Positions 33,952 to 53,526 of a stretch of DNA of 64,000 nucleotides are shown piece by piece. Position 1 is the first letter of the stretch, and every line of letters starts with the position of its first letter. Source of the DNA: Leucosporidium creatinivorum. Its lineage: Eukaryota; Basidiomycota; Microbotryomycetes; Leucosporidiales; Leucosporidiaceae. The notes below the pieces were generated by a model. It searched no databases. It was not told where the DNA came from and saw nothing but the letters and a program-made list of their open reading frames with translations. Where the stretch lies: assembly GCA_001600635.1 (NCBI GenBank), contig BCKL01000001.1, positions 1,034,808 to 1,098,807 of the forward strand. Reading direction: 5' to 3'. Position numbers and translations under genes: made by a program.

Positions 33952-35860
33952 TCATCCCGCCTTCGGCGGCGTCCAGGTCGATTTTGCCCACTCCAACCCC
34001 CTCAGCACTCCCGCCAGCTTGCAATCGCGATCGTAAGGACCCTTGCTCAGCTCCACAATCTTGCCAAATGGGCTCTCCGTCTTCCACGTGTCGTCGTTCT
34101 TCCAAGCGAGCATGCTGTCGTAGTCCTCGCGTCCCTCGGCGCTGGCGAGGAACTTGAGTCGCTCGGCGAGACGAGCGAGGCCGGCCTTATCCTCGTCGGA
34201 GAGCTTCTCGGGCGCTTCCGAGTCGGTGTTGGAGAGTGCAGTGAGAGAGGGGGAGAGGTAGTCGGCGACGTTGATGGCGGCGTTGGGAGAGGGGAAGAAG
34301 CGCTTGGCGTAATCAGGGGCGCCGAAGACGATGGGGACGGAGCCGCGTTCGAGAGGTTGATAGTACTATAGTTAGTGAATATTAGCTTCGATGCTCAGCA
34401 AAGGTGCGAGAGCTCGGCGCACCTTCTCCGTCACGTAGTCTGCGAGTGAGAGAGGTCAGCGAAGACCGAGCCATGGAGCGAGCAAGCGAGAGCTCACCGA
34501 GATCATTCGAGTTCTCAAGCGCGATCGAGAACTTGTAGTAGGAAAGGGTGGTGATCTGCGGGATGCCATCGTGAGCGCTGCGAGCTCGTGCAGGCTAGAC
34601 AGGCGGAATGTCGTTCGCTCACCTTGATGTTCCAGCGAGTAGGAGAAGTTCCAGCCTGCTCCCAGTGCCCAATGTCGCGCAGAGTCTGCTCGGCTTCTGC
34701 GTTGTTCTTGCACGAGCCAAACGAGTCGACCTGGAGGCGATGGAGTGAGCAAGCCGAGCTACCGAGGAGAAGGGAAGTGAGACCTCGTGAAAACCTACTT
34801 GACCTGGCAACATTTCCAGTAGCGAGTCGAGGATGAGGTTCCGAGCGTTCCGTGGGTGACAGTTGGAGATGAAGCTGTTGTGGGTGTGAGGGAACGTCAG
34901 TCCGAGAAGCTGAAGAAAGCCGAGCGAGCGCGATCGCTGAAAAGCTCACGCCGCTGCAATCTTGTCCTGCCGCTTGTCGTCGTATGGCACGGGCATGTTA
35001 CTGAAGTCCATGTAGCCGTAAGCGTAGGTGCCCGGTACCGAGCCATTGAGGCGGTCTGCGAGGGAGGGGACAGGTCAGCGTGCGCCGAGATTGCTCAGGC
35101 CCTCAGTCAAAGACTTACAGGTCATGTCGGCGTCGTAGAGATCGCTCGTGCCATCCTCCTTGATACTCCTGAAGTACCTCTCCAACCCTGCTCGGTTCGG
35201 CGCACTCTCTGAGCCCCAGATGACCTGCTTCTGCCACGGCCGCTCTATCCGCCGCGAGTCTCGCTCGGCCTGGTTGATGCCCTCGTACGAATCGGAGTTG
35301 TACACGACTCCATCTGCTGCTGCCTCGTCCTGGATGTACTCGACGGTGATGGGGCAGTCGGCGGGCGAGGAGATGGGCTTCTGCTTGTTGATGCTCGGCT
35401 CGCCATGGAAGTGAAGGGTGAAGGGCTTTTCGCCTGCTGATGTTGCTGTTGGTGCTGCTGCTGAGCTGGCTGAGGTGCTCGTCGTCATGCTGTCGCCTTG
35501 ACGGTCCAGTGCGTCGCCCGCTCCGCCTGCCTTGCCTCCGACTGCTGCTCCCGTTCCGCTTCGTCCACTCAGCTGCCATAATCCGTAACATGCTGCCGAG
35601 AACAGCACGCCTAGCCCGAATGCGAAGGCCAAATGCCACCTCCGGGCGCGCTCCTCCCTCTGCTCGTCGCGACCGCTCGACGTAGCGGGTCCTGCTTCGA
35701 CATCCGAAGCCTCTGGGTCCGGTACGCGATTGTACGAGAAGTCCTGCAGCGCGATTGGTGCCATGCCGCCCCGTCGGAGTCGGGAGAGGTGAGACGAGGA
35801 GGTGGGCAGAGCCAAGCTGGCGGTGCTGGAGCGGAAGGAAGAGGTCGATTGATGCAGCAT
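33952..35860 (-). CDS. GT10 alpha-1,3-fucosyltransferase-like protein A
   Basis: Seven exons, minus strand: 35119-35860, 34950-35055, 34799-34874, 34623-34730, 34498-34555, 34423-34439 (17 nt) and 33952-34365; 506 aa. It is a type II membrane protein: helix WHLAFAFGLGVLFSAACYGLW (about 76-96), then a Ser/Thr/Ala-rich stem. The GT10 donor-site signature is clear: RQDKIAAAFISNC, a region ending QVDSFGSC, and YYKFSIALENSNDLDYVTEKYY followed by LERGSVPIVFGAPDY. By family it transfers fucose from GDP-fucose to a glycan in the Golgi. The upstream paralogue B ends only 14 nt before the ATG at 35860. A second in-frame ATG at 35764 has a better context (G at -3) and would shorten the protein by 32 residues. 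Confidence 0.83.
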
Positions 35861-35874
35861 TTACGAGTTGCAGT

Positions 35875-37438
35875 CTACGCTTTAAAATCTCTATGCGGGA
35901 TCCACGACGGCTTTGCCCACTCCTCGCCCCTCAGTAGCCCTGCAAGTCGACACTCGGTCGACCATCTCTCCCTCCCCAAGCCGACCACTTTGCCGAGAGG
36001 ACTACTCGTCCAAGCGTCGCTCAGCTTCCACGAAAGGGCGTCCTCGTACTCTGATCGACCTTCCTCGCTGCCAAGATACCTCAGTCGCTCTGCTAGCCGA
36101 GCCAAACCCTCCTTCGTCTCGGCGTTGAGCTCGGTCGGAGCAGTGCTGTTGGAAGACGAAGGCGCCGAGTAGGAAGAGGGAAGGTAGTCGGCGATGTTGA
36201 TGGTGGCGTTGGAGGTGGGCAGGAACTCCTGGAAGTTGGGAGCGCCGAGGACGAGCGGGACTGATCCGTGCTCGAGCGCTTGGAAGTACTCTGCGAGATG
36301 GAGGAAAGGTGAGTTCCTTGGGCGATTTCTCGAACTTCGCTCGGATCCACCCACTCTCCGTGACGTAGTCGAGCTCGTTGCTGTTCTCCATGGCGAAGCT
36401 GAGGGCGAGCAAATCAGCTCGGCGATGATGGGCGAGGGCGTAAGATCAAGCTTACGCGAACTTGTATGCTGAAGTAGCAGCCACCTTGATGTTCCACTCC
36501 GTCTTATCCATGCCATCCCACAGACCCATGTACTGAAGTTCCTCGACGACATCGGCGTTGTGCGAGCAGGCGCCGAAGCTGTCGATTTGACCTAAGAAGG
36601 AGCCGGATCAGCGTACCGGTCTGAGTGCAGGACTCTCGCAACATACCAGGTAGAAGACGTATCAGCTCCTCGAGGATGATATTACGAGCGTTCTTCGCCT
36701 CGCAGTTGGACATGAAGGCGCTGGCGAGCTTATCCTGTCGTTTGCGCTCCCACGGCACGGGCGGTCGCTCAAACTGCATGTACGAGTAGCTGCGCACCGT
36801 TCCAGGATTAGCAGCAGCTTGTCTGACAGCCTGGTGAAGACTCACGCGTAGACCTGCGGCACGTCCGAGGTGAGACGATAGCCGAGCTCAAAGTCGAACG
36901 TCTCGTGGCGCCGTCCTTCGGCGATGAGCCGATGGTGCTCTTCCAGTAAGGGCCGATTTGGTGCAGATTCCCAGGCGAGGATGGCCTGAGACTGCCACGG
37001 TCGAACTCGGCGCTGGCTTTCTCGGTCGACGAGCCGCTCGGTCGAGAATTGATCGCTGTCCATGATGAGACAGTCGGCAGCGTATTCGTCGTCCTGTGTG
37101 GGATGAAACAGATCAGTGAGGTCCCGGACCAAAGTGCTTGGAAGACTCACAGTGAAGATCACGGTCAATGGGCAGTCCTGAGGCGAGAAGAGTGGTCGCC
37201 GATCGTTCTTCTCGGGCGCGTTGAGGTGGTGCAGCCGCACAGGCGGTGGAGGTCGTAACGAGTGAAGTTCCGGTACTGGCGAAGCTTCCTGCGACCAGCT
37301 GTGAGAAGCGTAGCCTCCAGCGAAGACGGCAGCGAAGAGGAGAGCTCGTCTGACAGTGCGCGCGGGTCTTGAGCGATACCGTGGCTGCAAGGGAGCTGGT
37401 GGAGAGCCATAAAGCTCGTAGGAAGCGTTCGAGCTCAT
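35875..37438 (-). CDS. GT10 alpha-1,3-fucosyltransferase-like protein B
   Basis: Six exons, minus strand: 37151-37438, 36846-37093, 36647-36789, 36456-36591, 36355-36398 and 35875-36290; 424 aa. It is a tandem paralogue of protein A with the same order of motifs: CPLTVIFTDDEYAADCLIMD, RPWQSQAILAWESAPNRP, KRQDKLASAFMSNCEAKNAR, QIDSFGACSHN, then AYKFAFAMENSNELDYVTEK and LEHGSVPLVLGAPNFQEF. A short hydrophobic segment (ALLFAAVFAGGYA, about 32-44) follows a basic N-terminus and would be the membrane anchor. ATG at 37438 is chosen because the alignment with A begins soon after; a longer frame to 37639 reads through leader. Relative to A, one intron (after NIK) is absent. Confidence 0.83.
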
Positions 37439-38220: not shown

Positions 38221-39269
38221 GGCGTGTGACGGGAGGGAAAGAGCCAGAGGACAGGAGTGAGAGGAGCAGGCGAACGGAGAAGAGCTGCGAGGACGGGGTT
38301 GCGCTGTTCGGGACAGCTGTAGGCGAGTAGGATGGTGTTCTATTATTTACCGCTACTGATGCAATGCTACATCAAGTCGTCTCGCACGCGGGAAATCGAG
38401 CTCGGTGAAGATACCGACGAGCTCGGCGCTCGTGCTGCTCGCTTTTCAGGAGAATCAGGAAGTTAAGAGCTCAGGGAGCTGATACAGGAAGCTTGTTGGG
38501 GCTTCTGCCGAGTATTCAGCTGCCTCGAGGTCACTGTTGTGCAGCGGAAGCTCGAAAGTCACTTCGGCGATCTCAGGCGGGAAGGTGAAGCGCCGAGAGG
38601 GGACTTGGACAAGGTGTAGCTGTATCGCAGACATGCTCAGTCAGGTCAGCGTTCTCTCTTTCCCTCTGTCCCGTCTTGCACCTCATCCAGCTCACACCTA
38701 AGCTCGCTCCTCCCTCGACTTGACCTTCGCCTGCGCTCGAACTCGGGGTTGCCCTCTTACGCTTCACTCGTCTCGCTCGCTTCAACTCGCTTCGCAGGGA
38801 CTCGCAGGGACTTATAGGGATAGAAGAATAGCTGGAAGCTCGACTGGAAGCTCTCGCCACCTCCTCACTCGCCTACAGCCCTCGTCGCTGCTGCTCAACT
38901 CGAAGCTCTCGTCACTCGCTCGCCGCTCTCGCTGGACTGAAGCTCGAGGGCGATACTTGGACTCCTCAAGAGTGAGTTGAGGTACCCCTCCGTGCTCTGC
39001 GACCTCTCCGCTGACCCCTGATGCTCTCCTACAGCCCCAAGCCCGACCCGAGCAGACTCCGACGCTCGCTCGGTCACAGCAACTCGGGCTAGTCTACAGC
39101 GGTCAACTTGAGCTACAGCAGGTGAGTAGTAGCAGGAGCGGGAGATGGGTGCGAGCCAATCGAGCTGACTCGTTTCGCCAATCTACAGCTCCCTCACGCT
39201 CGGTCGACCATCGCCGAGCTTCCTCCCTCCTCCAAGTCGCCTGCCCCCTCGTGAACCCTCTTCACCACC
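38221..39269 (+). repeat. Conserved leader of F-box paralogue 3, with 5' UTR introns
   Basis: Promoter and 5' UTR of the F-box gene at 39270. From about 38640 to 39115 it matches, in the gene's own orientation, the leaders of the F-box genes at 1205 and 51015. Two introns can be read on the plus strand: 38972-39034 (GTGAGT..CTGACCC..CTACAG) and 39122-39188 (GTGAGT..CTGACT..CTACAG). The first corresponds to the intron at 2609-2669 in paralogue 1. The left 400 bp is intergenic with no recognised feature. Confidence 0.6.
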
Positions 39270-40445
39270 ATGCCCGTCCCCCAGCTCCCTCCCGAGATCG
39301 TCCTCACCATCCTCAGAGCCATCTGCGAAAATTTTCGGTCGCCGATGCGCGACTGGGCGATCTGCTGCCGCGTTTCGAAGTCGTTCTTGCCTTTGGCTCG
39401 AGGACTTCTTTATGAGGACGTACACTTCGCTTTGGGGGACAGGCCCGACGAGCGCTCGTCGCGCCTCCTGGCTTCTCTGCTGAGCAATCCCGCCCTCGCC
39501 GTCCTCGTCAAGGATCTCGCCGTCAGCGTCTGGACAGGCTATGAGCATGTTGAGGCCAGCACTCCTCAGACTCTCGTCGCGTGTCCGGCGGCGAGGCGTC
39601 TCGACCTCCAATTTCATCCCGCGAATGGCTTCTCCTCGTCGCCGATGCCGAGCGACATCGGATCCGCCATCGTTGCCTTGGGTCCTCAGCTCGTATCGCT
39701 TAACGTCCACGGAAGCTCTTGGCCACTCGTCAACGTCGACTGGCTTACCCACCTCCGCAGGCTCAAAAGCCTGCAGCTCGACTACTGCTCCCCCCCGCCC
39801 GAGCTTTCGCCACCCTCCTTCGAGTTGCGAAGCTACACCGGGATCTACCGTACGGCGCAGGGGAGCATCAGACACGTGCAGCAAATCCTCTCGAGCTCGC
39901 GAGACTCCCTCACCGACCTGTCCCTCTGTCTGACCTCCATTCCGCCTTCCCTCGACCTCTCGGCGTTCACCGCCCTCGACACCGTCCACTTCGAGGTCGA
40001 GTTCACCCCAGTCGACCGCACGCCAGCGGCTTCTCGGCACCTTGCCACAATCTTCAAGGCCCTCCCCAGCGTCAAAGCTTTCTCTATGATGGCCCCAAGC
40101 CCGCCCAGCCCCACGCCCGCCCTCGAGGACATCGACATCCTTCGGCTGCTCCCGCCAAACGTCCAGGAGATCGGCTTCGGACACATTCCCATGAGAACCG
40201 ACTACCTCCTCGACGCCCTCGCCGATGGACGCTGCCTTCCCTTTCTCAAGTCGCTCTCTCTCGACTATCACGTCCGAGCAGACGAGAACGACGACTTGAG
40301 TTTCAAGCCGCGCCCACGTGCTGAGTTAAAGGCGGTCACGGATGCAGCTGAGAGTCGAGGAATCGAGCTCGAGTGGCTCTTCTTGGGTGAGGACATCCTC
40401 TGCGGCGAGTTCGAGGATGCCGAATTTTCGGTTGAGGATGGCTGA
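39270..40445 (+). CDS. F-box protein with leucine-rich-type C-terminal region (paralogue 3)
   Basis: Uninterrupted 391-aa reading frame. The F-box is MPVPQLPPEIVLTILRAICE with WAICCRVSKSFLPLARGLLYED (residues 5-52). Family blocks follow: LLSNPALAVLVKDLAV, RRLDLQFHP, LVSLNVHGSSW, FELRSYTGIYR, LTDLSLCLTSI, DIDILRLLPPNVQEIGF and the diagnostic tail TDYLLDALADGRCLPFLKSLSLD, then KAVTDAAESRGIELEW. Identical landmarks occur in the other paralogues, for example YLIDILSDTRCLPQIKKLGLD in paralogue 1. Predicted role: SCF ubiquitin ligase substrate receptor. It is the only one of the four on the plus strand. Confidence 0.78.
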   Translation: MPVPQLPPEIVLTILRAICENFRSPMRDWAICCRVSKSFLPLARGLLYEDVHFALGDRPDERSSRLLASLLSNPALAVLVKDLAVSVWTGYEHVEASTPQTLVACPAARRLDLQFHPANGFSSSPMPSDIGSAIVALGPQLVSLNVHGSSWPLVNVDWLTHLRRLKSLQLDYCSPPPELSPPSFELRSYTGIYRTAQGSIRHVQQILSSSRDSLTDLSLCLTSIPPSLDLSAFTALDTVHFEVEFTPVDRTPAASRHLATIFKALPSVKAFSMMAPSPPSPTPALEDIDILRLLPPNVQEIGFGHIPMRTDYLLDALADGRCLPFLKSLSLDYHVRADENDDLSFKPRPRAELKAVTDAAESRGIELEWLFLGEDILCGEFEDAEFSVEDG

Positions 40446-40687: not shown

Positions 40688-42315
40688 CAGCGCCTCGCCT
40701 CGCCTCCCTTCGGCTCACTTCGCACCCTCGGCGAGCCTCAGCACCTTGGCAAAGTCCCTCAACGCCTCGGATCCCTTCCCCAGCGGACAGGTCTCAAAAT
40801 GGTGCAGGACACGGTTCCTTCTCCGCAGCTTCGTGGGAGGGTCGTGGCGGCCTGTCCAGTCGCCATTGGAGGCCATCGGGTGCTGCTCGGCGCAGGATCA
40901 GTGAGCGCCGAGAGACGCCGAGAAGGTGAAATGGGGAGACGCACCAGTCCTCGACAGACTTGGTTCCTCCACCAGTGCCCCGATCCAAAGTCCGCCGTGG
41001 GAGTAGGAGTGAAGGAGCGAGGAGGGAAGTGGAAGATGAGGAGGGCCTGGCTCGGCGGGGAGAGTTGGAGGATGGGCGAGTGAGGTCGCTCGATGGCTTC
41101 GAAAGTGGTGAAGGAGGAGGGGAGTTGCTCTTCTAGAGTAGTAGGCTGAGCGAGTTGAAGCTTGAGGTGAGGTTCGAGACGACCTTGAGGCGACGACTTG
41201 AGCTCCTTGCCCGAGAGGGTGAGCTCCCGAATGCCTTGAGGAGCGTCGCGCCTGGAGGTAGAGTTGGCAGTGCGGTCAATGAGGATGTAGACGTCTCCTC
41301 CATTGAGCTCGGAGCTTTGAGCATCAGCAACCTCTGTAGGCAGGTCGTGGAGGGCGGGAGCGGCGCCGAGCTGCGAGCGACAAGGGCTGAACGGGTTCGG
41401 CGAGCCGGCGGAAAGGAAGTCACAGTCGATGGGTGTGGAAAGAGGGTTGTAGTGGAGCCAGCTCGAGCTGTCCGGTGCCTCTTGGATCGATATGGTGGGC
41501 TTGACGTCCTCTCCGAATCCTCCGATTGAAGCGCCGAGCTCGCTCTTCGTCGACACAGCCCCTTTCGTTGAGCTTGACGTCGAGCGAGCCGGCGCAGCGA
41601 CAGAGTTATCGTCTTGGTAGAAGCCGAAGCCTGGCGAATGCTGAGGCGGTGCAGGTCGAGCTTGAGGAGAGCGAGTGTCGGATCCACTCATCGCCGAGTT
41701 GAAGGAAGGGGGAGTGACGAGAGGGCGACGAGCGTACTCGGTAGGGGACGAGGTGAAGGCGAAGTCGTAATCCGGCGGTGTAGAAGGGTAGACGGCGAAC
41801 TGGTCGCTGTTCTTGAGCTGTGAGAGGCGGGAGTCGCGAAGGTCAGCTTGAGCTCGGATCGTCTCGAGGAGGTCCAGAGCAGATCCGACTCACCTTCTCC
41901 TGCTCCTCCATGTACCAAAGTAAGCTGTGGATGACGGCGAAGCGAGTCGACGAGTAGTAGCCCTGCTGGTTGAGGCTCGAGATGGTTGCCTCGCCGAGTG
42001 AGCGCTGCTGGGCGACCGCTGTATTGTAGTAAAGGGTCGTAGATCAGCTCTCAAGCTCATTACAGCTCCTGCATCTCTACCTGGACCCACCTCCACTCCA
42101 TTCGGTGACCAATCTCTCCAGCGGTACGAGCAGCTCGTGAAACCGACGAGCAAAGTGGGAACTGTGCGCCGAGATGGAGACGGGCGCAGGGTCGGGCGAG
42201 GGGAAGAAGGTCGCCATCACGATGTCGAACTGTTGCTGTAGTCGAACAAGTCGAAGGAGAAGAGCGAGAAGAGCGAAACCGAGTGACCAGCTCGAGTAGG
42301 ACCGACTGCGAAGGC
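40688..42315 (-). repeat. Inverted segmental duplication, left arm
   Basis: About 1.63 kb matching, in reverse complement, 48975-50618. The match includes the whole orphan gene with its introns, about 100 bp of leader (ending in a tract rich in ctcttctcg just before the ATG) and about 25 bp beyond the stop with a short ggcga repeat. Outside these limits the sequences stop agreeing. The edges are set by eye and may be off by tens of bases. Confidence 0.8.
40715..42217 (-). CDS. Orphan 430-aa protein, duplicate copy 1
   Basis: Four exons, minus strand: 42091-42217, 41894-42018, 40945-41817 and 40715-40882; 430 aa. Exon lengths (127, 125, 873, 168 nt) are identical to those of the inverted copy at 49077-50580. 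I do not recognise the family. Visible features: an N-terminal helical region (HFARRFHELLVPLERLVTEW; HSLLWYMEEQEKLKNSDQF), a long Ser/Pro/Ala-rich middle, a hydrophobic-acidic block GDVYILIDRTANST, and the segment FGSGHWWRNQVCRGL next to a basic C-terminal helix (TKLRRRNRVLHHF, ALRDFAKVLRLAEGGK). There is no signal peptide or membrane helix. The intact frame in both copies argues that it is a real protein. Confidence 0.7.
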
Positions 42316-42870
42316 TCGAGCAGGCGATTCATCTCGGTTGTACGTCGACATTGTAGCGAGAAGCCTGCCTCAAATGTGCTACACCGAGCAGCGAGAGCTG
42401 AGCGCAGCCTACAGCTTCATATCTCGACCGCTGCTCGGACTCAGGGGCTGTCCGGCTCGGTCTCGCTCTCCAGCATGCAGATCAGCTCGGGAAGGCTAGC
42501 CTCTGCACCAGACGATACAGACTCTCCTCAAGAAGTAATCGGCGCAGCCTGGCTCCTTCTCGCCCAGCAACAGTCGGCGAAGGCAGCAGTTGAAGATTGG
42601 AGGTCTGTGCGGCGATGAGGGGTCGAAGGGGGGATCATCGCCGAGTTGTTCGAGATCAGACAGGCCGAGCCCTGGACGAGTCATCCACAGCACTGCCGTC
42701 CACTCTGAAGGGGCGAGGTAGCTCGGCGAGAAGGCTGTGCATGACGAAATCCCTTGGGCGAAGCGCGAAGGGGGAAGGGCAGGGGAAGAAGCTCCGCACT
42801 TCGAGCTTTCCTTCCTTCGTCTCTCTGCTGCTCCTCTTTCGCTCTTTACAAGTACTCATCTACAGCAACC
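42316..42870. other. Divergent intergenic region left of the GPI-type gene
   Basis: About 550 bp between the duplicated orphan gene (-) and the secreted-protein gene (+). It holds both promoters; no gene recognised. Confidence 0.35.
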
Positions 42871-44155
42871 ATGCGCACCTCCTTCGTCCTCCTCCCTGCC
42901 TTCGCCGTCGCTGTTCTTGCTGCTCCCGCTCCGCTCGACATTGGGTGAGTTTAGACGCCTTTTCTCTGCTTGTGAGGACTGATAGGGTCACGGGAAGGGT
43001 ACAATCAGCCCAATGGGAAGCTTGACGAGCTCTCACTGCTCCTGGAGCTGTCGAGGTGCACCTGACGAGGTGCAGCAAGCCGAGAGCTCGGGCACCGCCT
43101 CCTTTGGGCAGCAGCTCGGCCAGGCTGGACTTCGCGCTGAAGGGCTACGCAGGGCTGTACGCTGACCAATCTTACACCATCCTACGCTACAGAGACATCA
43201 CCAGCCTCGCTGGAAGTCTGGCCGACGGCGCGACCAGTTTCGGCGCGTCCATCGCTGGAGAGGCTACCAGTCTCGGAGGATCCATCGCAGGCGACGCAAC
43301 GAGCTTCGCTGGGGGAGCGTTCGATACGGTGACCAGTGTCGGATATGGCGCATACACGTGAGTTCTATTCGGGACGAAGCCAGGCTTGCTGCTCGCAGAC
43401 CGAGCTCCCCCATCGCGTGAGAAGATTGCAGGCTGACTTCGCTGTTCAATCTCGATAGCCGTGTGACCAGTGTTGGAGGGAGTCTCGTCACGGAGGTCAC
43501 CGATGGAGCGCACACCGCCTTCGAGTGAGTTTTGACTTTGCTCGGTCGAGTTCTCACCGGCGCCGAACCCCCAGGGCTTCCGCTGACCTTCGCTCTCTCG
43601 TAGGTATATCACCTCAGGAGCCGATGGAGTCGTCGGAACCGTCACCTCCTTCGCTGGATCTGTAGCTACCGACGCCGCCTCGCTGGGAACCTCCCTCGCC
43701 TCAGCGGGGGAGTCTCGCGCAACGAGTCTTGCCTCGAAGGCTACGGGAGCCGGTGGGAGCGTCGTCTCGGGCGCTACAGCTGGAGCAACTTCAGCTCAGT
43801 CGGCTGCCACCGGCGCTGCTTCCTCTGCCGCCTCGGGCGCATCGTGAGTTCCCATTCCTCTCGGCTCGCTGCCTTCCTCGGTCGACGTCAGGCGCTATCC
43901 TCAAGCACGAGCGTCATGCGTAGGATCTCCTGCTCACGAGGAATGGGGCGCCAAAGGAGATCCCTTCCCGATAGGAGAGCTCAGCGCTGACGTCTTGCCT
44001 TTCTCTCCCTGCCTCCCTTCCCGCCGACGACCTTCCGCCTTCGCAGCGCCGCCGCCCCGACTTCTGGCGCCATGTCCCTCTCCGGCAGCTGGGCTCTCGC
44101 ATCCTGGGCCACCGTCATGCTGGCTGGAGTCGCCGGTGGAGCCCTCCTCGCCTAA
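42871..44155 (+). CDS. Small secreted Ala/Ser/Gly/Thr-rich protein, probably GPI-anchored
   Basis: Best model: exons 42871-42944, 43193-43357, 43459-43524, 43604-43843 and 44047-44155; 217 aa. MRTSFVLLPAFAVAVLAAPAP is a clear signal peptide. The body is a degenerate repeat of about 11 residues (ITSLAGSLADG, ATSFGASIAGE, ATSLGGSIAGD, ATSFAGGAFD), likely heavily O-glycosylated. The C-terminus SGSWALASWATVMLAGVAGG ends in a hydrophobic stretch suited to GPI attachment, so a wall or surface protein is expected. Intron 1 in this model is 248 nt, much longer than its neighbours, and contains an open stretch (about 43009-43156) whose inclusion I could not fit in phase. An alternative or missed exon is possible. 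Confidence 0.6.
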
Positions 44156-45267
44156 GCCGTCGCGTCGACGAGGTAAATGGCGTCTCGGCGCGCTGGTACC
44201 CCTGGCTTTTTCGCTCTCTTTATACACCGTCCGCAATACCAACCCCCGTAGTACATAACATAGATCGAATGCACGCGATGAGGGGGAGAGAGAACAAAAG
44301 ACGATTCAAAGCGATCGCTGCAGGTCGATACATAGAAAGAAAGGCGAGTCGCGTGGGTTGGGCTTGAGACCGAGAATTCAGGTCTTACGGAATGGGCGAT
44401 CTATTGGAATACGGGCATGCCAGCCAGCTCGCCTGCATGCATCTTCCGTCGATACATGGGAAGGAGGACGGGAGCGGCGAGGGAAGCTGGGAGGGGCGAG
44501 CGCCGAGGTTGGGTTCTTCCTCTTAACGACCCGGGAAGAACGAGAGCGCGGACTTAAGGCCTTGATGGGCATGATGCCGGGTTGAGAGCTTCTGGCGAAA
44601 ATGAATCCGAGAGTTGTGGGTCGAGGGCCCGAGGTCGAGAGCAAAGGGCGAGAGGTTCGGCGAAGGTGTTGAACGAGGGGAGAGCGGAAGCTGCTCCGGA
44701 ATAGGGAGGTTGCATGGCGGCCAGAGCTCGAGATACGGATGATGTGTACCAGACTGGTAGCTCTGGGCGCCTGACGCGTCAGGCGAGAACTGCCTGGCGA
44801 CAATGTTGAGTGAGAAGAGAGTTTAGAGACGGAGTGGGGGAGGACTCTCGGCGGAGGCCCTACAGACTTGTGCCGCCAATCGAATTGCCGTAGGAAGGCT
44901 CCTCTCTTCCCTCCCTCTCTTCACCTACAATACTTTGCTACAGCGCTCGCTGCAAGCAAGTTCAGAGTACTAGAGTCGCTTGCCCTCCCCGCTCCCTTCC
45001 CCCTTTGGCCGCCTCTCCGTCGCCTCTGTCGCTTGGGTTCGATCATTCGCCCTCTTCCTCTCTCCCGCCTTTGTCGTCTCTCTCGTGTGGCCCGCCCCTC
45101 CCCCTCCCTTTCATCAACCTACAGCACAGTTTACTAGTCGTTCAACACACCAGTCGCGTCCACCTCTCGCCCTTCCTTTCTCTCTTTACACCCCTTCGAC
45201 CTCCGCCCGAACACGACGTGCTCCTCGCTCTTTTCCTCGTTACGGCCAAGCTGTAGCTGCTCCTGCC
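44156..45267. other. Intergenic region upstream of CDC25
   Basis: About 1.1 kb. The right half (44880-45267) is a CT-rich CDC25 promoter/leader. On the minus strand 44378-44803 is an open frame of 141 codons, very rich in Arg and Ser, like a mitochondrial presequence but without a recognisable mature domain. I do not call it a gene. Confidence 0.35.
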
Positions 45268-48266
45268 ATGGCCCTCATCTCCTCCTCACCAGGGCCAGAG
45301 TACCACCCTCATCGGCACAACCTCTTCCTTCAACATCACCTCACAGCACCTTCCAGCCCGACCCTCTCTTACCAGGATGGGGAAATCTCGCCCTCCTTTG
45401 ACGCCTCGTTCGCCAGCTCCATGTGAGTACTATGCTACAGCTTACTGCTCTACAACACCTGAGCTGACCTCTCCCACCTCCCTACCAAGGTCCATCTCCG
45501 CGGATCCCTTGCCAGACCTGTCGCCGGGACAGCAAGGAGGAGGGCGTCATGGCCATCAGGAGATCGCTTCCTCATCGCCCGTGCAGATGGACATCTCGCC
45601 TGCACCACATCACACCCAACCCTCCATCTCGAGTCGATTGGCCGCCGCCAGCGCCGTACCTCCGCCGCCAGCGCCTAGCTTTGACCGGACGCAATCTCAG
45701 CCCGCGACGACGACCGAGTACCCCTTCCTGCGCAACCTGTTCCACCCTCGTCCACCTCTACCAGCATCTACCGTATCGACCAGCAGCCTCCCTACCGCCC
45801 TCGCCTGCGGTGGATCCGCTGCTTCCTCGACCGAGGCCGGAGACTTCCTCCTGCCCGCGACGGCTCCATTGTCGCTCAAGGCGCGCCGTCAAGGTCGTCC
45901 TTCGCTCCAGCATGCCGCTTCGACCGGCAGCTTGGGACTCAGGCCGCCTTTCGAGCTGCGCGGGACCCAGTCCAAGTCGAGCTTGAGGGAAGCCGAGACG
46001 TTCGCAGAGGAAGCCGTCGCCGAGGACGAGGCGTTGGACGAGGAGGAAGGGCCCATGGCACCTCCTCGCATCTCTTTGTGCGTTTCTCGTTCTTCCTGCA
46101 CCTCACCGACAAAGCTGACCTATTCGGTTCGACAGGAAATCGAGGAGCGCTCTCCCCGTCGGCTGGAACAAGCCGCCGAGTCGTTCGCGCCACACCGCTC
46201 CCAGCGGGGCGCTGTTCCTCCAGCCACCGCCTGTTCCTCTGCCCAAGCGACGAGTGAGTCGCTCGAATACGACCTCGTCGCTCGCAGCGCTGACCTCGCT
46301 CGTCCTGCAGTCGGAGCCCGCCGTTCCCACCTACACGGCCGAGCCGGAGTCGTCTCCCTACCGCATGGACGTCGACGGCGCTTCCCCTGGTGGACGCCTC
46401 TCCTCGCCCGTCTCCCTTCGTCCAGCTCAGCACCCCCGCTCCGTCTCCGACTCGCGTGCCGGCACCAGCAGCAACCCTTTCCTCTTCCCTCCCGGCTCTC
46501 CTCCCCGCGTCAACGCACCCGTCGAGAACCCCGAATCAGGCGCCTCAGATCGGCTGGCTGATCTGTTCGCCGACGACCTTTCGCCCATCCCTCAGTCGCG
46601 CAAGCGCTTCCTCGAGGAGCATCACTCACCTACGCCGGCCTCGCCTTCTCCCGCGACCGCTACGACCGCATCCCTCTTCCCCGCCAAGGGCAGTCGTCGC
46701 TCCCTCGAAAAGGCCATGTCGACCACCTCGATCCCCCTCCAAGGCCCCATCCGTCGCCAACGCTCGGCGCACTCGCTCGGCGTCAAGAAGCGCCCTTCCC
46801 TCTCCAACATCCCCGTTCCTCCCCTCCCCTCGGTCGAGTCGACCGCTCCCCTCGCCACGACCTTCAAGCGCCACGCCCCCGCCATCAACGGCAAGCCCAA
46901 GAGCATGCGCCGCGCCTTCTCGGTCGCCGATGCCTCGGTCCCTGGAGCCATCCTCCTCGGCGCTGGCAAGGAGAACCGCGCGAGCGTCGCTTCTGCGTGC
47001 GAGGTCGGAGGATACTTCTCGCCTTCGTCGAGACGAGCAGGAGTCGCTTCGATGGACCTTAGCTCGTCGTCGGAGAAGACGAGGATGCCTGCTCACGAGA
47101 CGGGCAGCCCCATCACGGGCTTCAGGAGTCAGGAGGCCAAGGGTAAGGCTCTTCCTTGCTTTGGCGTCAAGGAGGACGGTTTGATGAGGATCAGTGCTGC
47201 TACCGTGAGTCTCATGCCGTCGCTTCCAGTCGAGTCGCAAGAGCTGACCTCCTCGCCCTGCTCGCAGCTCAACGACGTCCAGAGCGGCATGTTCTCCTCT
47301 CGCATTAAGCGCTTCGTCATCATCGACTGTCGCTTCGACTACGAGTACGAGGGAGGACACATCGCCGAAGCCATCAACCTCTCCGAGATGGCCGCGGTTG
47401 ACAAGGCGCTGCTCAGCTCCACCGACCTGCCCGAGCCGAGCACGAGCGAGTTTGGACCTGCGGGCGGCAAGACGGTCCTCATCTTCCACTGCGAGTTCTC
47501 TGCCAAGAGGGCTCCGACGACGTGAGTTCGCGCCAGCTATTAAGGTTCCCGAGAAGGTCGAGGCTGACCCGACCGACTCGCCCACCTCGTGCAGCGCCAA
47601 ACACCTCCGCAACCAAGATCGCCTCAAGAATGTCGGAGCGTACCCCAACATCCACTACCCCGAGGTCTATGTACTTCAGGGCGGCTACGCCGAGTTCTTC
47701 AAGAGCTTCCCTGTACGTTGTCGCATTCCGCCGTCGGCTCAACTCGACGCTGACCCTCCTCCTTCTCGCGCGAACCATAGGAGCGATGCGTTGGCGGCTA
47801 CCTCGAGATGGACGATCCTGCCCGTCTCGCCGAGCGCGGCATCAAGCTCAACAACTTCCGCAACCAAGTCCAGAAGCGCCAGTTCCAACGCGCCAACACC
47901 TTCACCTTCGGCGAGGCTCAGCACGCCTCGACCCTCCTCCAAGCGGCGACCAACTCGCAACGACCTCCCATGCGCCCTCGTACCGGCGGCCTCGACAAGT
48001 CGTTCGCCTTCCCCGCCGTCAAGGAGGCCGTCAACGCCATGTCGGCGTGCCATGAGGACGAGCAGGAGGCCGACTCGTCGTTCGGCACCCAGGGCTCGAG
48101 TCCTGGAGGAGGAGATTCGCCTTGCCCTACGAGCAAGATGGGTCGCCATTCGCTCAAGATTGGCAAGGAGCTCGGCATGCTGTCCATGCATGGAGCGTCG
48201 GTAGCGGGCCCGCGCCGAGCACTCGAGAGGGCGCAGACGGCGGCGACTCTCATGTTCACTCGCTAG
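45268..48266 (+). CDS. CDC25: M-phase inducer phosphatase (Cdc25)
   Basis: Seven exons: 45268-45422, 45490-46077, 46136-46253, 46311-47204, 47268-47521, 47595-47712 and 47781-48266; 870 aa. It activates Cdk1 by removing inhibitory phosphates at mitotic entry. The rhodanese-type catalytic domain lies at about 565-730: FVIIDCRFDYEYEGGHIAEAINL, then the CX5R loop HCEFSAKRAP (Cys660, Arg666), LRNQDRLKN, YPEVYVLQGGYAEFF and GGYLEMDDP. The long N-terminus is disordered and rich in Ser-Pro and Thr-Pro sites with Arg-x-x-Ser motifs, as expected for checkpoint and Cdk control; it contains a KEN box (GAGKENRAS). It lies between the arms of the inverted duplication. Confidence 0.92.
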
Positions 48267-48974
48267 GAGCCGGATCCTGCCGCCTTCTCCCTCTCATCCC
48301 TCCCTCCGGCCTACTTCACCTCATCGCCCTCGCTACCTCTTCCCCTCCCCTACCCCTCCATCATCATCACGACCTTTCTGCATTCCTCTTCACGACTCGA
48401 CACGCCCACGCACCCTCATCATGCTCGTCACGAAGAAGTCCCCACCAATCTCGCAACACATAACGACCACACCACCGCCGCTTTACTCGCCGTACACTTT
48501 GACGCCCCACCGCCTACGAAACTCAGCAGTCAACTTTCACGCCTCTTCACGACCACCACAACCCCAAAAACCGTCTCACGACCCTTTACGATGACTCTTC
48601 GACCGACTCCCTACATCCACTTACTCGGAGCGCTCTACCTTCATCGACGACGACGAACCCCCGACGACACGAAGCTTACCCCCCCTCTTAGTTGCAACCC
48701 TCTCGGCCGTTATTCTTGCTTACATTCTTTACCTCCCTCGTACTCTATATATCTTTCACTTCCTCGTTTCCACCACATTTTCTCTCACGTACATACATAC
48801 TACATTTCGCAATCGTCGTTGACTTCCTTTTTCCCACATCTCGGCGCCGAGCGACTGGAGAGACAGGAGAGCCAAGACAACGGCGAGCGATTCGGGTAGC
48901 TGAGGTTCGTGGCTACTCGCCTACAGACTTCGGCGCAATCTCGGTCTTCTGCTGCTGCGGTACGGGATGACCGA
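48267..48974. other. CDC25 3' UTR and intergenic region
   Basis: About 700 bp. Pyrimidine- and CAC/ACG-rich sequence (48270-48660) is followed by a more T-rich part (48690-48840). No gene supported. Confidence 0.35.
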
Positions 48975-50618
48975 CTGAGCCTTCGCAGCCGGTCCTACTC
49001 GAGCTGGTCACTCGGTTTCGCTCTTCTCGCTCTTCTCCTTCGACTTGTTCGACTACAGCAACAGTTCGACATCGTGATGGCGACCTTCTTCCCCTTACCC
49101 GACCCTGCGCCCGTCTCCATCTCGGCGCACAGCTCGCACTTTGCTCGCCGGTTTCACGAGCTGCTCGTACCGCTCGAGAGTTTGGTCACCGAATGGAGTG
49201 GAGGTGAGTCCAAGTAGAGATGCAGGAGCTGTATCGAGCTTAAGAGCTGACCAACGACCCCCCTACCCCGATACAGCGGTCGCCCAGCAACGCTCGCTCG
49301 GCGAGGGTACCATCTCGAGCCTCAACCAGCAAGGCTACTACTCGTCGACTCGCTTCGCCGTCATTCACAGCTTACTTTGGTACATGGAGGAGCAGGAGAA
49401 GGTGAGTCGGATCTGCTCTGGACCTCCTCGAGACGACCCGAGCTCAAGCTGACCTTCGCGACTCCCGTCTCTCACAGCTGAAGAACAGCGACCAGTTCGC
49501 CGTCTACCCTACTACACCGCCGGGTCGAGACTTCGCCTTCACCTCATCGCCTACCGAGTACGCTCGTCGCCCTACCGTCACTCCCCCTTCCGTCAACTCG
49601 GCGATGATGGGATCCGACCCTCGCTCTCCTCAAGCTCGACCTGCACCGCCTCAGCATTCGCCAGGCTTCGGCTTCTACCAAGACGATGACTCTGTCGCTG
49701 CGCCGGCTCGCTCGACGTCAAGCTCGACGAAAGGGGCTGTGTCGACGAAGAGCGAGCTCGGCGCTTCAATCGGAGGATTCGGAGAGGACGTCAAGCCCAC
49801 CATACCGATCCAAGAGGCACCGGACAGCTCGAGCTGGCTCCACTACAACCCTCTTTCCACACCCATCGACTGTGACTTCCTTTCCGCCGGCTCGCCGAAC
49901 CCGTTCAGCCCTTGTCGCTCGCAGCTCGGCGCCGCTCCCGCCCTCCACGACCTGCCTACAGAGGTTGCTGATGCTCACAGCTCCGAGCTCAATGTAGGAG
50001 ACGTCTACATCCTCATCGACCGCACTGCCAACTCTACCTCCAAGCGCGACGCTGCTCAAGCCGTTCGCGAGCTCACCCTCTCGGGGAAGGAGCTCAAGTC
50101 GACACCTGAAGGACGCCTCGAGCCGCATCTCCAGCTCCAACTCGCTCAGCCTACTACTCTGGAAGAGCAACTCCCCTCCTCCTTCACCACTTTCGAAGCT
50201 ATCCAACGCCCTCACTCGCCCATCCTCCAACTCTCGCCGCCGAGCCAGCATCTCCTCGTCTTCCACTTTCCACCTTGCTCCTTCACTCCTACTCCCACGG
50301 CCGACTTTGGATCGGGGCACTGGTGGAGAAACCAAGTCTGTCGAGGACTGGTGCGTCTCCCCATACCACCTTCTCGTCGTCTCTCGGCGCTCGCTGACCC
50401 TTCGCCGAGCAGCACCCGATGGCCTCGAACGGCGACTGGACAGGCCGCCACGACCCTCCCACGAAGCTGCGGAGGAGGAACCGTGTTCTGCACCATTTTG
50501 AGACCTGTCAGCTGGGGAAGGGGTCCGAGGCGTTGAGGGACTTTGCCAAGGTGCTGAGGCTCGCCGAGGGTGGGAAGTGAGCCGAAGGGAGGCGAGGCGA
50601 GGCGAGGCGAGGCGCTTC
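48975..50618 (+). repeat. Inverted segmental duplication, right arm
   Basis: Reverse-complement partner of 40688-42315. The distance between the arms is about 6.7 kb. It ends in a longer ggcga pentamer run (about 50588-50612) than the left arm. Confidence 0.8.
49077..50580 (+). CDS. Orphan 430-aa protein, duplicate copy 2
   Basis: Four exons: 49077-49203, 49277-49401, 49478-50350 and 50413-50580; 430 aa, the same exon lengths as copy 1 at 40715-42217. By eye about 15 residues differ in the 250 compared in the large exon, for example a DDN to DDD change, TISIQ to TIPIQ, and PQGIRE to AQAVRE, so roughly 94 per cent identity there. No frame damage is seen in either copy. The function is unknown; the N-terminal block SSHFARRFHELLVPLESL and the conserved GHWWRNQVCRGL are the best handles for a search. 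Both copies keep about 100 bp of identical leader, so both may be expressed alike. Confidence 0.7.
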
Positions 50619-51014: not shown

Positions 51015-52196
51015 CTACTCCTCCGACGAGCCCCAGCCATCGCTCTCCGAGTTGTCCCTCGACCAATCCGAATCGAGTTCAACCCCTCTGCGTTGAGCGG
51101 CGTCTACTATACACTTCTTCTCGTCGTAGGGCCGTGGGTTGATGCTCCCATGCACGAGGATGGTGGTGTCGATGAGGAGGTCGCGGAGAGAGGGAAGGCA
51201 GCGACGGTCATTCAGGGAGGTAAGAGGATAAGAGGTGTCGAGGGGCACTCCTGTGTACATGAGCCGAGTGACAGTCGAAGGTAGGCTGCCGAGGAAGTCC
51301 ATGGCTTCAAGATCGGAGGGGAAGACGTGCACGCTCGGGAGGGAGAGCTCGAGGACCTCGATGGACGGCAGGGCTCTGACGAAGGCATGCAGCCTTGAAG
51401 CTGATGTTGTCGAGTCCCTGAGCCAGTTGTGCTTACAGGACAGCCGAACCGTGCGAAGTGACGCGAACGCCGAGAGGTCGAGCGGAGAGGGCACGCCGGG
51501 CCAATTTAACTCCAGTGAAAGAAGGGAACCGCTCGACCTCGAGAGGAGTATGGTGAGATCTTGAGATGTGTTCAACTGGCGCCGCTCGCACTCGCCGCGG
51601 TAATGCTTGAGCTGGAAGGGCGGGCCGGTCGTGGGCGTCGCAGGCGGGTGAGGGTGGCTGTTCCATAAGTTGGTGAGGCGCGGCAGGCCTACGAGCAGGT
51701 TCATGCTCGGGGACCACTCCGTTCCGGACACCAAAAGATCTGTGAGATGGGGACCGTGGGAGAGGATGGCACGCTCGACAGAGGAGGGGATCGCCGAGCT
51801 GCTGCCGTCTGGTCCCGAGTACCCATATGTGAGGGCGAGATGGAGGATGTGGATGTTGGGACAGGGAATGAGAACGCTGCAGCAACCTTCGATGATGCTC
51901 GGGTTGTCTCTTGTCGCGCTGATGACGAGCTTCCTGACGAGGCTGGCGAGGTGGGTGTGTTCGATGAGGGTCGCGTGGAGCAGCGAGCTGACCGCGCGTG
52001 GCTCCCTACTCGGCGGTGCGCTGGCCCGTTTGAGAGGAGAAGTGCGCCACTCAACATATGCCGCTTTGTAGAGAAGTCCTCGGGCGAGCGGTAAGAACGA
52101 CTTGGAAACGAGGCAGCAGCTTGCCTGGTCGCTCGGAAGGGGGTTCTGCTCGAGGATGGCGGAGACGATCTCGGGAGGAAATGATGGGATAGCCAT
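51015..52196 (-). CDS. F-box protein with leucine-rich-type C-terminal region (paralogue 4)
   Basis: Uninterrupted 393-aa reading frame from ATG at 52196. The F-box is MAIPSFPPEIVSAILEQNPL with QASCCLVSKSFLPLARGLLYKA. Family blocks are LASLVRKLVISA, IHILHLALTYG, LTDLLVSGTEWS, FQLKHYRGECER, LLSLELNWPGV, AMDFLGSLPSTVTRLMYTGV and the tail SYPLTSLNDRRCLPSLRDLLID, then KKCIVDAAQRRGVELDSDW. The order is the same as in paralogues 1 to 3. Likely an SCF substrate receptor, partner unknown. Confidence 0.78.
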   Translation of the reverse strand: MAIPSFPPEIVSAILEQNPLPSDQASCCLVSKSFLPLARGLLYKAAYVEWRTSPLKRASAPPSREPRAVSSLLHATLIEHTHLASLVRKLVISATRDNPSIIEGCCSVLIPCPNIHILHLALTYGYSGPDGSSSAIPSSVERAILSHGPHLTDLLVSGTEWSPSMNLLVGLPRLTNLWNSHPHPPATPTTGPPFQLKHYRGECERRQLNTSQDLTILLSRSSGSLLSLELNWPGVPSPLDLSAFASLRTVRLSCKHNWLRDSTTSASRLHAFVRALPSIEVLELSLPSVHVFPSDLEAMDFLGSLPSTVTRLMYTGVPLDTSYPLTSLNDRRCLPSLRDLLIDTTILVHGSINPRPYDEKKCIVDAAQRRGVELDSDWSRDNSESDGWGSSEE

Positions 52197-52900
52197 GTCG
52201 AGGAGGTGTACGGTGAGGAGGGGGAGCGGGTGGGCGAAGAGGGCGAGGGAAGGAGGTTCGGCGATGGTCGATCGAGCTTCGGGGGAGCTGTAGGTCGGCG
52301 TAAGGAGTCAGCTCCGCCGTCGCAGCACGTTTGTATCACCCTTCTACCACTCAACTGCTGTAGCTGAAGGCGAGCGTAGGCGAGAGCACGAGCCTTGTTG
52401 TGGGCGACGAGGGGAGCGAGCGTCCGAACTCTGCTCGAGTTGAGCTGGGAGCTGTAGGAGAGGGTAGCGGGTTAGCGGAGAGGCAGCAGAGCAGTCAGAG
52501 ATACTCGAATTGCTCTTGAGCAGTCGAAGTCTCGCCCTCGAGCTTCCAGTCCAGCGAGAGCGGCGAGCGAGTGCTTCGAGTTGAGCAGCAGCGACGAAGA
52601 GAGGTGTAGTCGAGTGGGGAGGGTCTTCAGAGCTTCCAGTCGAGCTTCCAGCTAGCTTCGTAGCTGTCCTAGTCCCTGCGAGGCGAGTCGAAGCGAGCGA
52701 GACGAGTGAAGCGTATTAGAGCAAGCCGAGTTCGAGCGGACGGTCAAGTCGAGGGGAGGCGCGAGCTTAGGTGTGAGCTGGATGGGGCTGAAAAGTGGGA
52801 CAGAGGGAGTGGAAAAGGGCTGACTTGACTGGGTGCGTCTGCGATACAACTACACCTCGTCCTAACCCGCTGTCGGCGCTCCAGCTTCCCCTCTGAGATC
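52197..52900 (-). repeat. Conserved leader of F-box paralogue 4
   Basis: 5' region with strong similarity to the leader of paralogue 1. Shared stretches include the area 52380-52490 (against 2540-2640) and the block 52681-52715 with the core gacgagtgaagcgta (against 2846-2883). A minus-strand 5' UTR intron like that of paralogue 1 ends at about 52452 (CTCCTACAG). Confidence 0.6.
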
Positions 52901-53439
52901 GCCGAAGTGAGGTCGCTTGCGTGGAGCTAGCCGGCTGCAACTCGCACAGTGGCCCCGGGCAGTCTCAAGGACTGTACAACCATGCCTCAGCAAGTCTGAA
53001 ACCAGTCAAGCTCCTTCCACACACGCGCAACAGAGCGCCGAGCACAAACTTGAAAGGCCCTTCGCCAAGCAACGAGGAAAGCGTCGCAAGTGGCAGGGAA
53101 CGAGGCAAATAGCTGCGGCGTATGATTTAGAGGCGATAACACTATCCTTAGCCCAATCCCGAGAGTAGGCAGCTCGATGTACCACCTCGGCGGAACGAGT
53201 CCGAGCAAGAGCTTCGCTCCCTCACTGACTTCTCTCCCAGAGCATCAGGCGAGGTGCTCTTTGCAAGGGAAGCGAAGAGGAAGTCTACTCTGCCTCCCTC
53301 GCGAAGATCCGAGGCAATCCGACCTGTACGAAGCTCATTAGAAGCGGGAGGGGCCAAGTGAGAGGTGAACAAAGCTGGCTTTAAACCGTTTTGGATTTTA
53401 TATTGAACAAAATAGATTCGACAGCATAAAAAGCAACCA
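52901..53439. other. Intergenic region before the tRNA
   Basis: About 540 bp without a supported gene. The last 60 bp (53375-53435) are unusually AT-rich for this genome, including ttttatattgaac, as often seen just upstream of tRNA genes. Confidence 0.4.
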
Positions 53440-53526
53440 GCCTTCATAGCTCAGTGGTAGAGCGCATGCCTAGTACTTTCAACACGGTATAGCATGAGGT
53501 CCTCAGTTCGATCCTGGGTGAAGGCA
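53440..53526 (+). tRNA. tRNA-Thr (anticodon AGT) with a 15-nt intron
   Basis: The cloverleaf can be folded by hand. Acceptor stem GCCTTCA pairs with TGAAGGC, discriminator A. D stem GCTC/GAGC with loop AGTGGTA. Anticodon stem CATGC/GCATG. T stem CTCAG/CTGGG with loop TTCGATC. The anticodon loop CTAGTA..A carries AGT at 53472-53474, read as inosine-GU, threonine. A 15-nt intron (53476-53490) lies one base after the anticodon, the canonical position. Internal box A (TAGCTCAGTGG) and box B (GTTCGATCC) promoters are present. Confidence 0.9.

What the first reader, a model, noticed from the sequence alone, without database searches (positions are those of the whole stretch)
40688..50618. Recent inverted duplication of an orphan gene flanking CDC25 and a surface protein gene
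Arms 40688-42315 and 48975-50618 are near-identical in opposite orientation. Both carry an intact four-exon gene with identical exon lengths (127, 125, 873, 168 nt) and about 94 per cent identical protein in the compared part, including matching leader DNA. The 6.7-kb interior holds a GPI-type secreted protein and CDC25. Inverted arms of this length can recombine and flip the interior, or keep each other similar by gene conversion. The protein family is not one I know.
Basis: partly seen in the sequence, partly recalled or inferred. Interest (0 to 1): 0.75.

Follow-up and report, generated by a model that had tools for sequence, protein, structure and literature searches.

The report
Inverted orphan gene pair exchanging sequence
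A yeast-like fungus carries two mirror-image copies of a little-known gene on either side of a cell-division gene, and their DNA suggests that the copies overwrite parts of each other, as a few inverted gene pairs in flies and baker's yeast do.

Summary
Arms 40691-42317 and 48977-50604 are inverted, 94.3% identical, and each carries an intact four-exon gene (403 of 430 residues identical). They are the only clear copies in the genome. The protein has no Pfam or PDB relative; its only named relatives are two Leucosporidium creatinivorum proteins, both listed with a contig of 156,621 bases, so probably linked. "Recent duplication" is too simple. A 358-bp tract has 3 differences (dS 0.011, against 0.191 elsewhere) although it encodes the part least conserved against L. 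creatinivorum: gene conversion, not constraint. Homology stops at the gene's edges, and of 286 columns 68 split by species, none by copy. Best reading: an inverted paralog pair homogenised by intrachromosomal gene conversion, working like Drosophila Amy/Hsp70 pairs and the Saccharomyces flip/flop repeats. Whether the duplication predates the species split, and whether the interior flips, could not be tested; independent duplication is a serious rival. New member of a known kind; moderate interest.

The parts
40691..42317 (-). left arm of the inverted repeat (ungapped extension reaches 40680)
48977..50604 (+). right arm of the inverted repeat (ungapped extension reaches 50615)
40715..42217 (-). 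left orphan gene, coding exons 42217-42091, 42018-41894, 41817-40945, 40882-40715; 430 aa
   Evidence: spliced model without internal stop; no transcript evidence
49077..50580 (+). right orphan gene, coding exons 49077-49203, 49277-49401, 49478-50350, 50413-50580; 430 aa
   Evidence: spliced model without internal stop; no transcript evidence
41318..41675 (-). near-identical tract in left exon 3 (3 differences in 358 bp), taken as a gene-conversion tract
49620..49977 (+). the same tract in the right copy (position computed from the ungapped exon 3)
42199..42317 (-). 5' end of the left arm, one difference to 48977-49095; possible second conversion tract (not tested on its own)
42871..43840 (+). 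interior gene: putative secreted Ala/Ser/Thr-rich protein; end and exons approximate
   Evidence: read by eye from translations
45500..48269 (+). interior gene: CDC25-type phosphatase; modelled exons 45500-46077 (5' end not modelled), 46136-47521, 47595-47712, 47781-48269
39270..40445 (+). left outer F-box-like ORF
   Evidence: 19.1 bits, below the 24.3 cut-off
51015..52196 (-). right outer F-box-like ORF
   Evidence: 15.5 bits, below the 24.3 cut-off
38559..39229 (+). leader of the left F-box gene
52245..52910 (-). leader of the right F-box gene

Best explanation
Two functional copies of an orphan gene of the Leucosporidium group lie in inverted orientation about 6.7 kb apart and exchange sequence by intrachromosomal gene conversion. 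When a break in one copy is repaired from the other, short stretches are copied across, so the genes stay alike while promoters and intergenic DNA diverge freely. Shown by computation: inverted arms, mosaic identity with one near-identical tract, purifying selection between the copies, homology limited to the gene, closer resemblance of copies within each of two species. Inferred: that the pair predates the split from L. creatinivorum, that conversion rather than re-duplication keeps it alike, and that a rare crossover would flip the CDC25 interval. The protein's biochemical role is not known; I infer from the homogenisation and purifying selection that dosage or interchangeability of the two products is selected.
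For: Differences cluster: 3 in 41318-41675, longest identical run 172 bp (0 of 2000 random placements reach it; 1 of 2000 has an equally clean 300-bp window). Tract dN 0.008 dS 0.011, rest dN 0.043 dS 0.191. Third positions 1 of 119 against 42 of 311, P 9e-6; fourfold sites 1 of 72 against 22 of 162, P 0.003; run test on all 234 fourfold sites 163 of 10,000. The tract is the part least conserved against L. creatinivorum P0001 (52 of 111 inside, 204 of 277 outside), so constraint does not explain it. Flanks beyond the gene show little or nothing. Copies within species 269 and 248 of 286 identical, between species 178-180 of 286; 68 columns split by species, 0 by copy, 164 invariant, 54 other. 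27 of 61 differing codons nonsynonymous where 75% is expected, P 5e-7.
Against: The species pattern is equally expected from independent duplications in each lineage; no DNA of L. creatinivorum could be read, and CDC25 of that species was not among the 120 proteins listed of 365. The tract was picked after seeing the data and its strictest test is modest (163 of 10,000). P0001 and P0002 show no such contrast between tract and rest (89 of 116 and 174 of 234). No strains or reads were available. One review passage reports that conversion in C. elegans may favour the same orientation (PMC3966223).
Confidence: 0.58

Rival explanations
1. One fairly recent inverted duplication in this lineage, and a separate duplication in L. 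creatinivorum, with breakpoints at the gene's edges; the near-identical tract is one later conversion event or chance.
For: dS of only 0.14 between copies; abrupt arm ends beside highly identical sequence; no copy-specific residue shared with L. creatinivorum (0 of 286 columns); a GAGGC array at one outer end could mark a breakpoint.
Against: It needs two duplications of the same gene in two species and breakpoints that fall at the gene's edges at both ends; it does not by itself explain the mosaic.
Confidence: 0.33
2. The identical tract reflects strong selection on that part of the protein or on DNA or RNA elements inside it, not conversion.
For: The tract lies in coding sequence, where constraint varies.
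Against: Silent sites are affected (third positions 1 of 119 against 42 of 311) and the tract is the least conserved part against L. creatinivorum.
Confidence: 0.05
3. The arms are copies of a mobile element or an assembly artefact.
For: A compact unit with sharp edges.
Against: Two copies only in the genome, introns retained, no Pfam match at E 10, 92 differences between arms and no ambiguous base.
Confidence: 0.04

Closest known systems
Saccharomyces chromosome XIV flip/flop inverted repeats with the Centroid genes YNL018C/YNL034W (PMC9731477; abstract and passages seen)
   Same: Fungal inverted repeat carrying a fast-evolving, lineage-restricted gene around a short interior; copies within a species more alike than orthologs (97% against 72% there; 94% against 63% here); homogenisation put down to gene conversion.
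   Different: There 4.2-kb, almost identical arms around 24 kb with 15 genes, the same site in all species of the genus, both orientations seen, gene essential for sporulation. Here 1.6-kb arms at 94% around 6.7 kb; position in relatives, orientation polymorphism and function unknown. Sequence relation to Centroid was not tested directly.
Drosophila Amy and Hsp70 palindromic gene pairs (review PMC3924832; passages seen)
   Same: Linked mirror-image paralogs, more alike within than between species; for Amy the homogenisation is confined to coding sequence with flanks evolving independently, as the edges here suggest.
   Different: Shared silent polymorphism and several species support conversion there; here one genome plus two proteins of one relative. 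The genes are unrelated and here have introns.

Membership tests
Inverted (palindromic) paralog pair under concerted evolution | Linked paralogs in opposite orientation | tested here: met
Inverted (palindromic) paralog pair under concerted evolution | Paralogs of one species more alike than orthologs, the duplication being older than the species | tested here: inconclusive
   First half met (269 and 248 of 286 against 178-180 of 286); age of the duplication not testable without L. creatinivorum DNA
Inverted (palindromic) paralog pair under concerted evolution | Mosaic identity with conversion tracts | tested here: met
Inverted (palindromic) paralog pair under concerted evolution | Flanks diverged beyond the homogenised part | tested here: met
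   16, 7 and 26 of 200 shuffles reach the scores of three flank pairs, (the interior flank, 7 of 200, is borderline)
Inverted (palindromic) paralog pair under concerted evolution | Shared silent polymorphism between copies | not testable with these tools
   no population data
Flip/flop-type recurrent inversion | Both orientations of the interior among strains or species | not testable with these tools
   one genome only
Flip/flop-type recurrent inversion | Same repeat boundaries at the same site in related species | not testable with these tools
   only equal contig lengths for the two L. creatinivorum proteins; its CDC25 not among the 120 listed of 365
Centroid gene family | Sequence homology to YNL018C/YNL034W | not tested
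   no Centroid sequence was fetched; no Pfam family matched at E 10
CDC25 / M-phase inducer phosphatase (interior gene) | Rhodanese-type catalytic domain and closest relatives annotated as such | tested here: met
   PF00581 29.3 bits, cut-off 22.2; best named hits M-phase inducer phosphatases
F-box proteins (outer genes) | F-box-like domain over the Pfam cut-off | tested here: inconclusive
   PF12937 19.1 and 15.5 bits against a cut-off of 24.3

The most novel reading that the evidence does not exclude
The locus is an independently evolved basidiomycete counterpart of the Saccharomyces flip/flop region: a fast-evolving, lineage-specific gene kept as a homogenised inverted pair across species, now and then flipping the CDC25 interval, inside a chromosomal domain where neighbouring inverted F-box genes also exchange their leaders but not their coding parts.
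Probability: 0.2. Interest if true: 0.65.

Novelty: new member of a known kind. Interest (0 to 1): 0.42.

Why it matters
For the known fungal case (flip/flop) the authors say that they could not identify what keeps its fast-evolving genes identical (PMC9731477, passages). A second, apparently unrelated fungal case would let one ask what the two have in common: dosage, sporulation, or drive. Flipping an interval with the mitotic inducer CDC25 would also be expected to suppress recombination there in heterozygotes. As it stands it is one genome, two proteins of a relative, and an inference.

Tried and rejected
Mating-type region: STE3 pieces lie on C25 and the one homeobox match on C24, so C1 is not an obvious MAT contig. 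Transposon: two copies only. Third paralog: a C9 hit of 39 residues, E 0.055, with one stop, is not convincing. Structure: the single-sequence model had mean pLDDT 36.6 (the query was an ORF that reads through intron 3), and the nine-row alignment model 45.1; both too poor, so no fold search was run. PDB: none for the single protein; for the profile only three hits at E 0.43-2.2. Synteny through CDC25: no L. creatinivorum entry among the 120 listed of 365. The outer F-box genes as part of one simple inverted block: the coding parts reject it, p-AU 4e-6. Literature: the listings of five searches showed no paper on this locus or gene family; most subscription journals are not held. No call identifies the organism.

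Full report
WHAT IS THERE. The window is G000:C1:1034808-1098807, in a genome of 27.7 Mb in 63 contigs. Microbotryomycete matches to CDC25 and Leucosporidium matches to the orphan gene suggest a basidiomycete yeast near Leucosporidium; no call names the organism. Self-blastn gives one strong inverted pair, 40691-42317 against 50604-48977, 94.3% over 1628 columns. The left arm as a DNA query finds these two places only. The right copy's 376-residue ORF around exon 3 finds the same two places plus one fragment on C9 at E 0.055.

THE GENE. Both copies splice into 430 aa with exons 127/125/873/168 and no internal stop; 404 of 431 codons including the stop encode the same residue. Differences by codon position are 16/12/43; NG86 dN 0.033, dS 0.136. 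Of 61 differing codons 27 are nonsynonymous, where 75% is expected from random single changes, P 5e-7: purifying selection between the copies. There is no Pfam match at E 10 for the spliced protein or for any of 9 family members, no PDB match for the single protein, and only three hits at E 0.43-2.2 for a profile. Two searches of 5.8 billion proteins, each scoring only the roughly 8000 candidates with most shared words, gave 5 and 7 proteins: two of L. creatinivorum and five from unnamed contigs. So it is an orphan restricted, as far as these searches see, to close kin.

HOMOGENISATION. The arms differ at 92 of 1627 aligned sites plus one gap. The differences are clustered: 41318-41675 has 3, and the longest identical run is 172 bp; 0 of 2000 random placements reach that run and 1 of 2000 has an equally clean 300-bp window. 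Inside the tract dN is 0.008 and dS 0.011; outside, 0.043 and 0.191. The tract encodes the part that differs most from L. creatinivorum (right copy against P0001: 52 of 111 identical inside, 204 of 277 outside), so constraint does not explain it. Third positions differ at 1 of 119 inside and 42 of 311 outside, P 9e-6; fourfold sites at 1 of 72 and 22 of 162, P 0.003. Because I chose the tract after seeing it, the fairest test is the longest identical run among all 234 fourfold sites: 163 of 10,000 shuffles reach it. The 5' end, 42199-42317, has one difference but was not tested on its own. Introns are 60 of 72-73, 74 of 76 and 56 of 62 identical. This mosaic is what gene conversion leaves. In L. 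creatinivorum the same stretch is not more alike than the rest between P0001 and P0002 (89 of 116 inside, 174 of 234 outside; the latter includes P0002's doubtful start).

EDGES. The 100 bp before the ATG are 99 of 100 identical and the 24 bp after the stop all identical. Beyond, the F-box-orphan gap, the interior flank and the outer side have alignment scores that 16, 7 and 26 of 200 shuffles reach; the interior value is borderline. At dS 0.14-0.19 a wider duplication of the same age should still be visible. Either the breakpoints lay at the gene's ends, or the duplication is older and only the gene has been kept alike.

THE RELATIVE. L. creatinivorum P0001 and P0002 are both listed with a contig of 156,621 bases, hence probably on one scaffold (inference). 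From the residues FAFTSS on, in 286 gap-free columns, they are 248 identical to each other and 178-180 to ours; ours are 269 identical to each other. 68 columns split by species, none by copy, 164 are invariant and 54 other. P0002's annotated start looks like an out-of-frame reading of exon 2 (against the frames, by eye), so whether that copy is intact is not known. The pattern fits concerted evolution and equally two independent duplications; DNA of L. creatinivorum would decide.

SURROUNDINGS. The left leader has 18 matching pieces in the genome, itself included, all on C1 between 0.80 and 1.43 Mb (lower bound). The left F-box protein has 70 matches on twelve contigs. For trees I took 13 of the 70, on C1 between 0.87 and 1.43 Mb, one of them a partial match of 233 residues, and left out the other 57, among them split or stop-bearing ones in the same region. 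Coding data reject the window's two F-box genes as sisters (p-AU 4e-6) and join the right one with the gene at 1021 kb (bootstrap 100); leader data reject that pairing (p-AU 0.005) and join the window's two (bootstrap 85). So leaders and coding parts have different histories. Leader identity falls with distance (Mantel, 17 of 5000) while coding identity does not clearly (670 of 5000). Of 11 pairs within 40 kb, the 8 inverted ones have a mean leader identity of 70% and the 3 direct ones 56%; 74 of 4991 orientation shuffles do as well. This is small and post hoc, only suggestive of leader exchange between inverted neighbours; constrained leaders with fast-evolving coding parts are the alternative. 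A further inverted pair on C1, 1241773-1246377 against 1267390-1262804, 98.2% over 4609 columns, includes an F-box gene. Both copies carry scattered N, in the F-box gene at matching residues, so its true identity is uncertain.

MECHANISM AND COMPARISON. The anatomy matches palindromic gene pairs homogenised by ectopic conversion: Drosophila Amy, where concerted evolution is confined to coding sequence, and Hsp70 (PMC3924832, passages). The nearest fungal case is the Saccharomyces flip/flop region, whose inverted repeats with the Centroid genes are homogenised while the interval between them flips over evolutionary time; no flip was seen in about 53,800 mitoses and 950 meioses (PMC9731477, abstract and passages). 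A Caenorhabditis review says that conversion occurs in either orientation, cites one study that suggests the same orientation is favoured, and gives an early tract estimate of over 191 bp (PMC3966223, passages). This locus works like these pairs; no tested feature of the kind failed, but the age of the pair and any flipping are untested.

VERDICT. 'Recent inverted duplication' is better read as an inverted pair being homogenised, with independent duplication as a rival at about one third. New member of a known kind; interest 0.42.

Noticed in passing
38559-39229, 52245-52910, 2518-2939; C1 0.80-1.43 Mb: F-box-like genes with a conserved leader, 18 leader matches all on one stretch of C1; leaders are more alike than coding parts and the two have conflicting trees.
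   Followed up: partly
G000:C1:1241773-1246377 and 1262804-1267390 (L027, L056; L026, L057): A second inverted pair on C1, 98.2% over 4609 columns, with an F-box gene; both copies carry scattered N, in the F-box gene at matching residues, so the assembly may have blended them.
   Followed up: partly
34248-34367 and 36175-36290: Two neighbouring similar genes, 75% identical in this piece; the motifs look to me like alpha-1,3-fucosyltransferases (recalled, not searched).
   Followed up: no
53440-53526: A tRNA-Leu gene just outside the mirrored region.
   Followed up: no
50589-50614: A GAGGC array of 5.2 units at the outer end of the right arm; the left arm end has a shorter version.
   Followed up: no
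P0002 (L. creatinivorum BCR35DRAFT_164296), first 70 residues: Its annotated N-terminus resembles an out-of-frame reading of exon 2 of this gene: a wrong gene model or a frameshifted copy (by eye).
   Followed up: no
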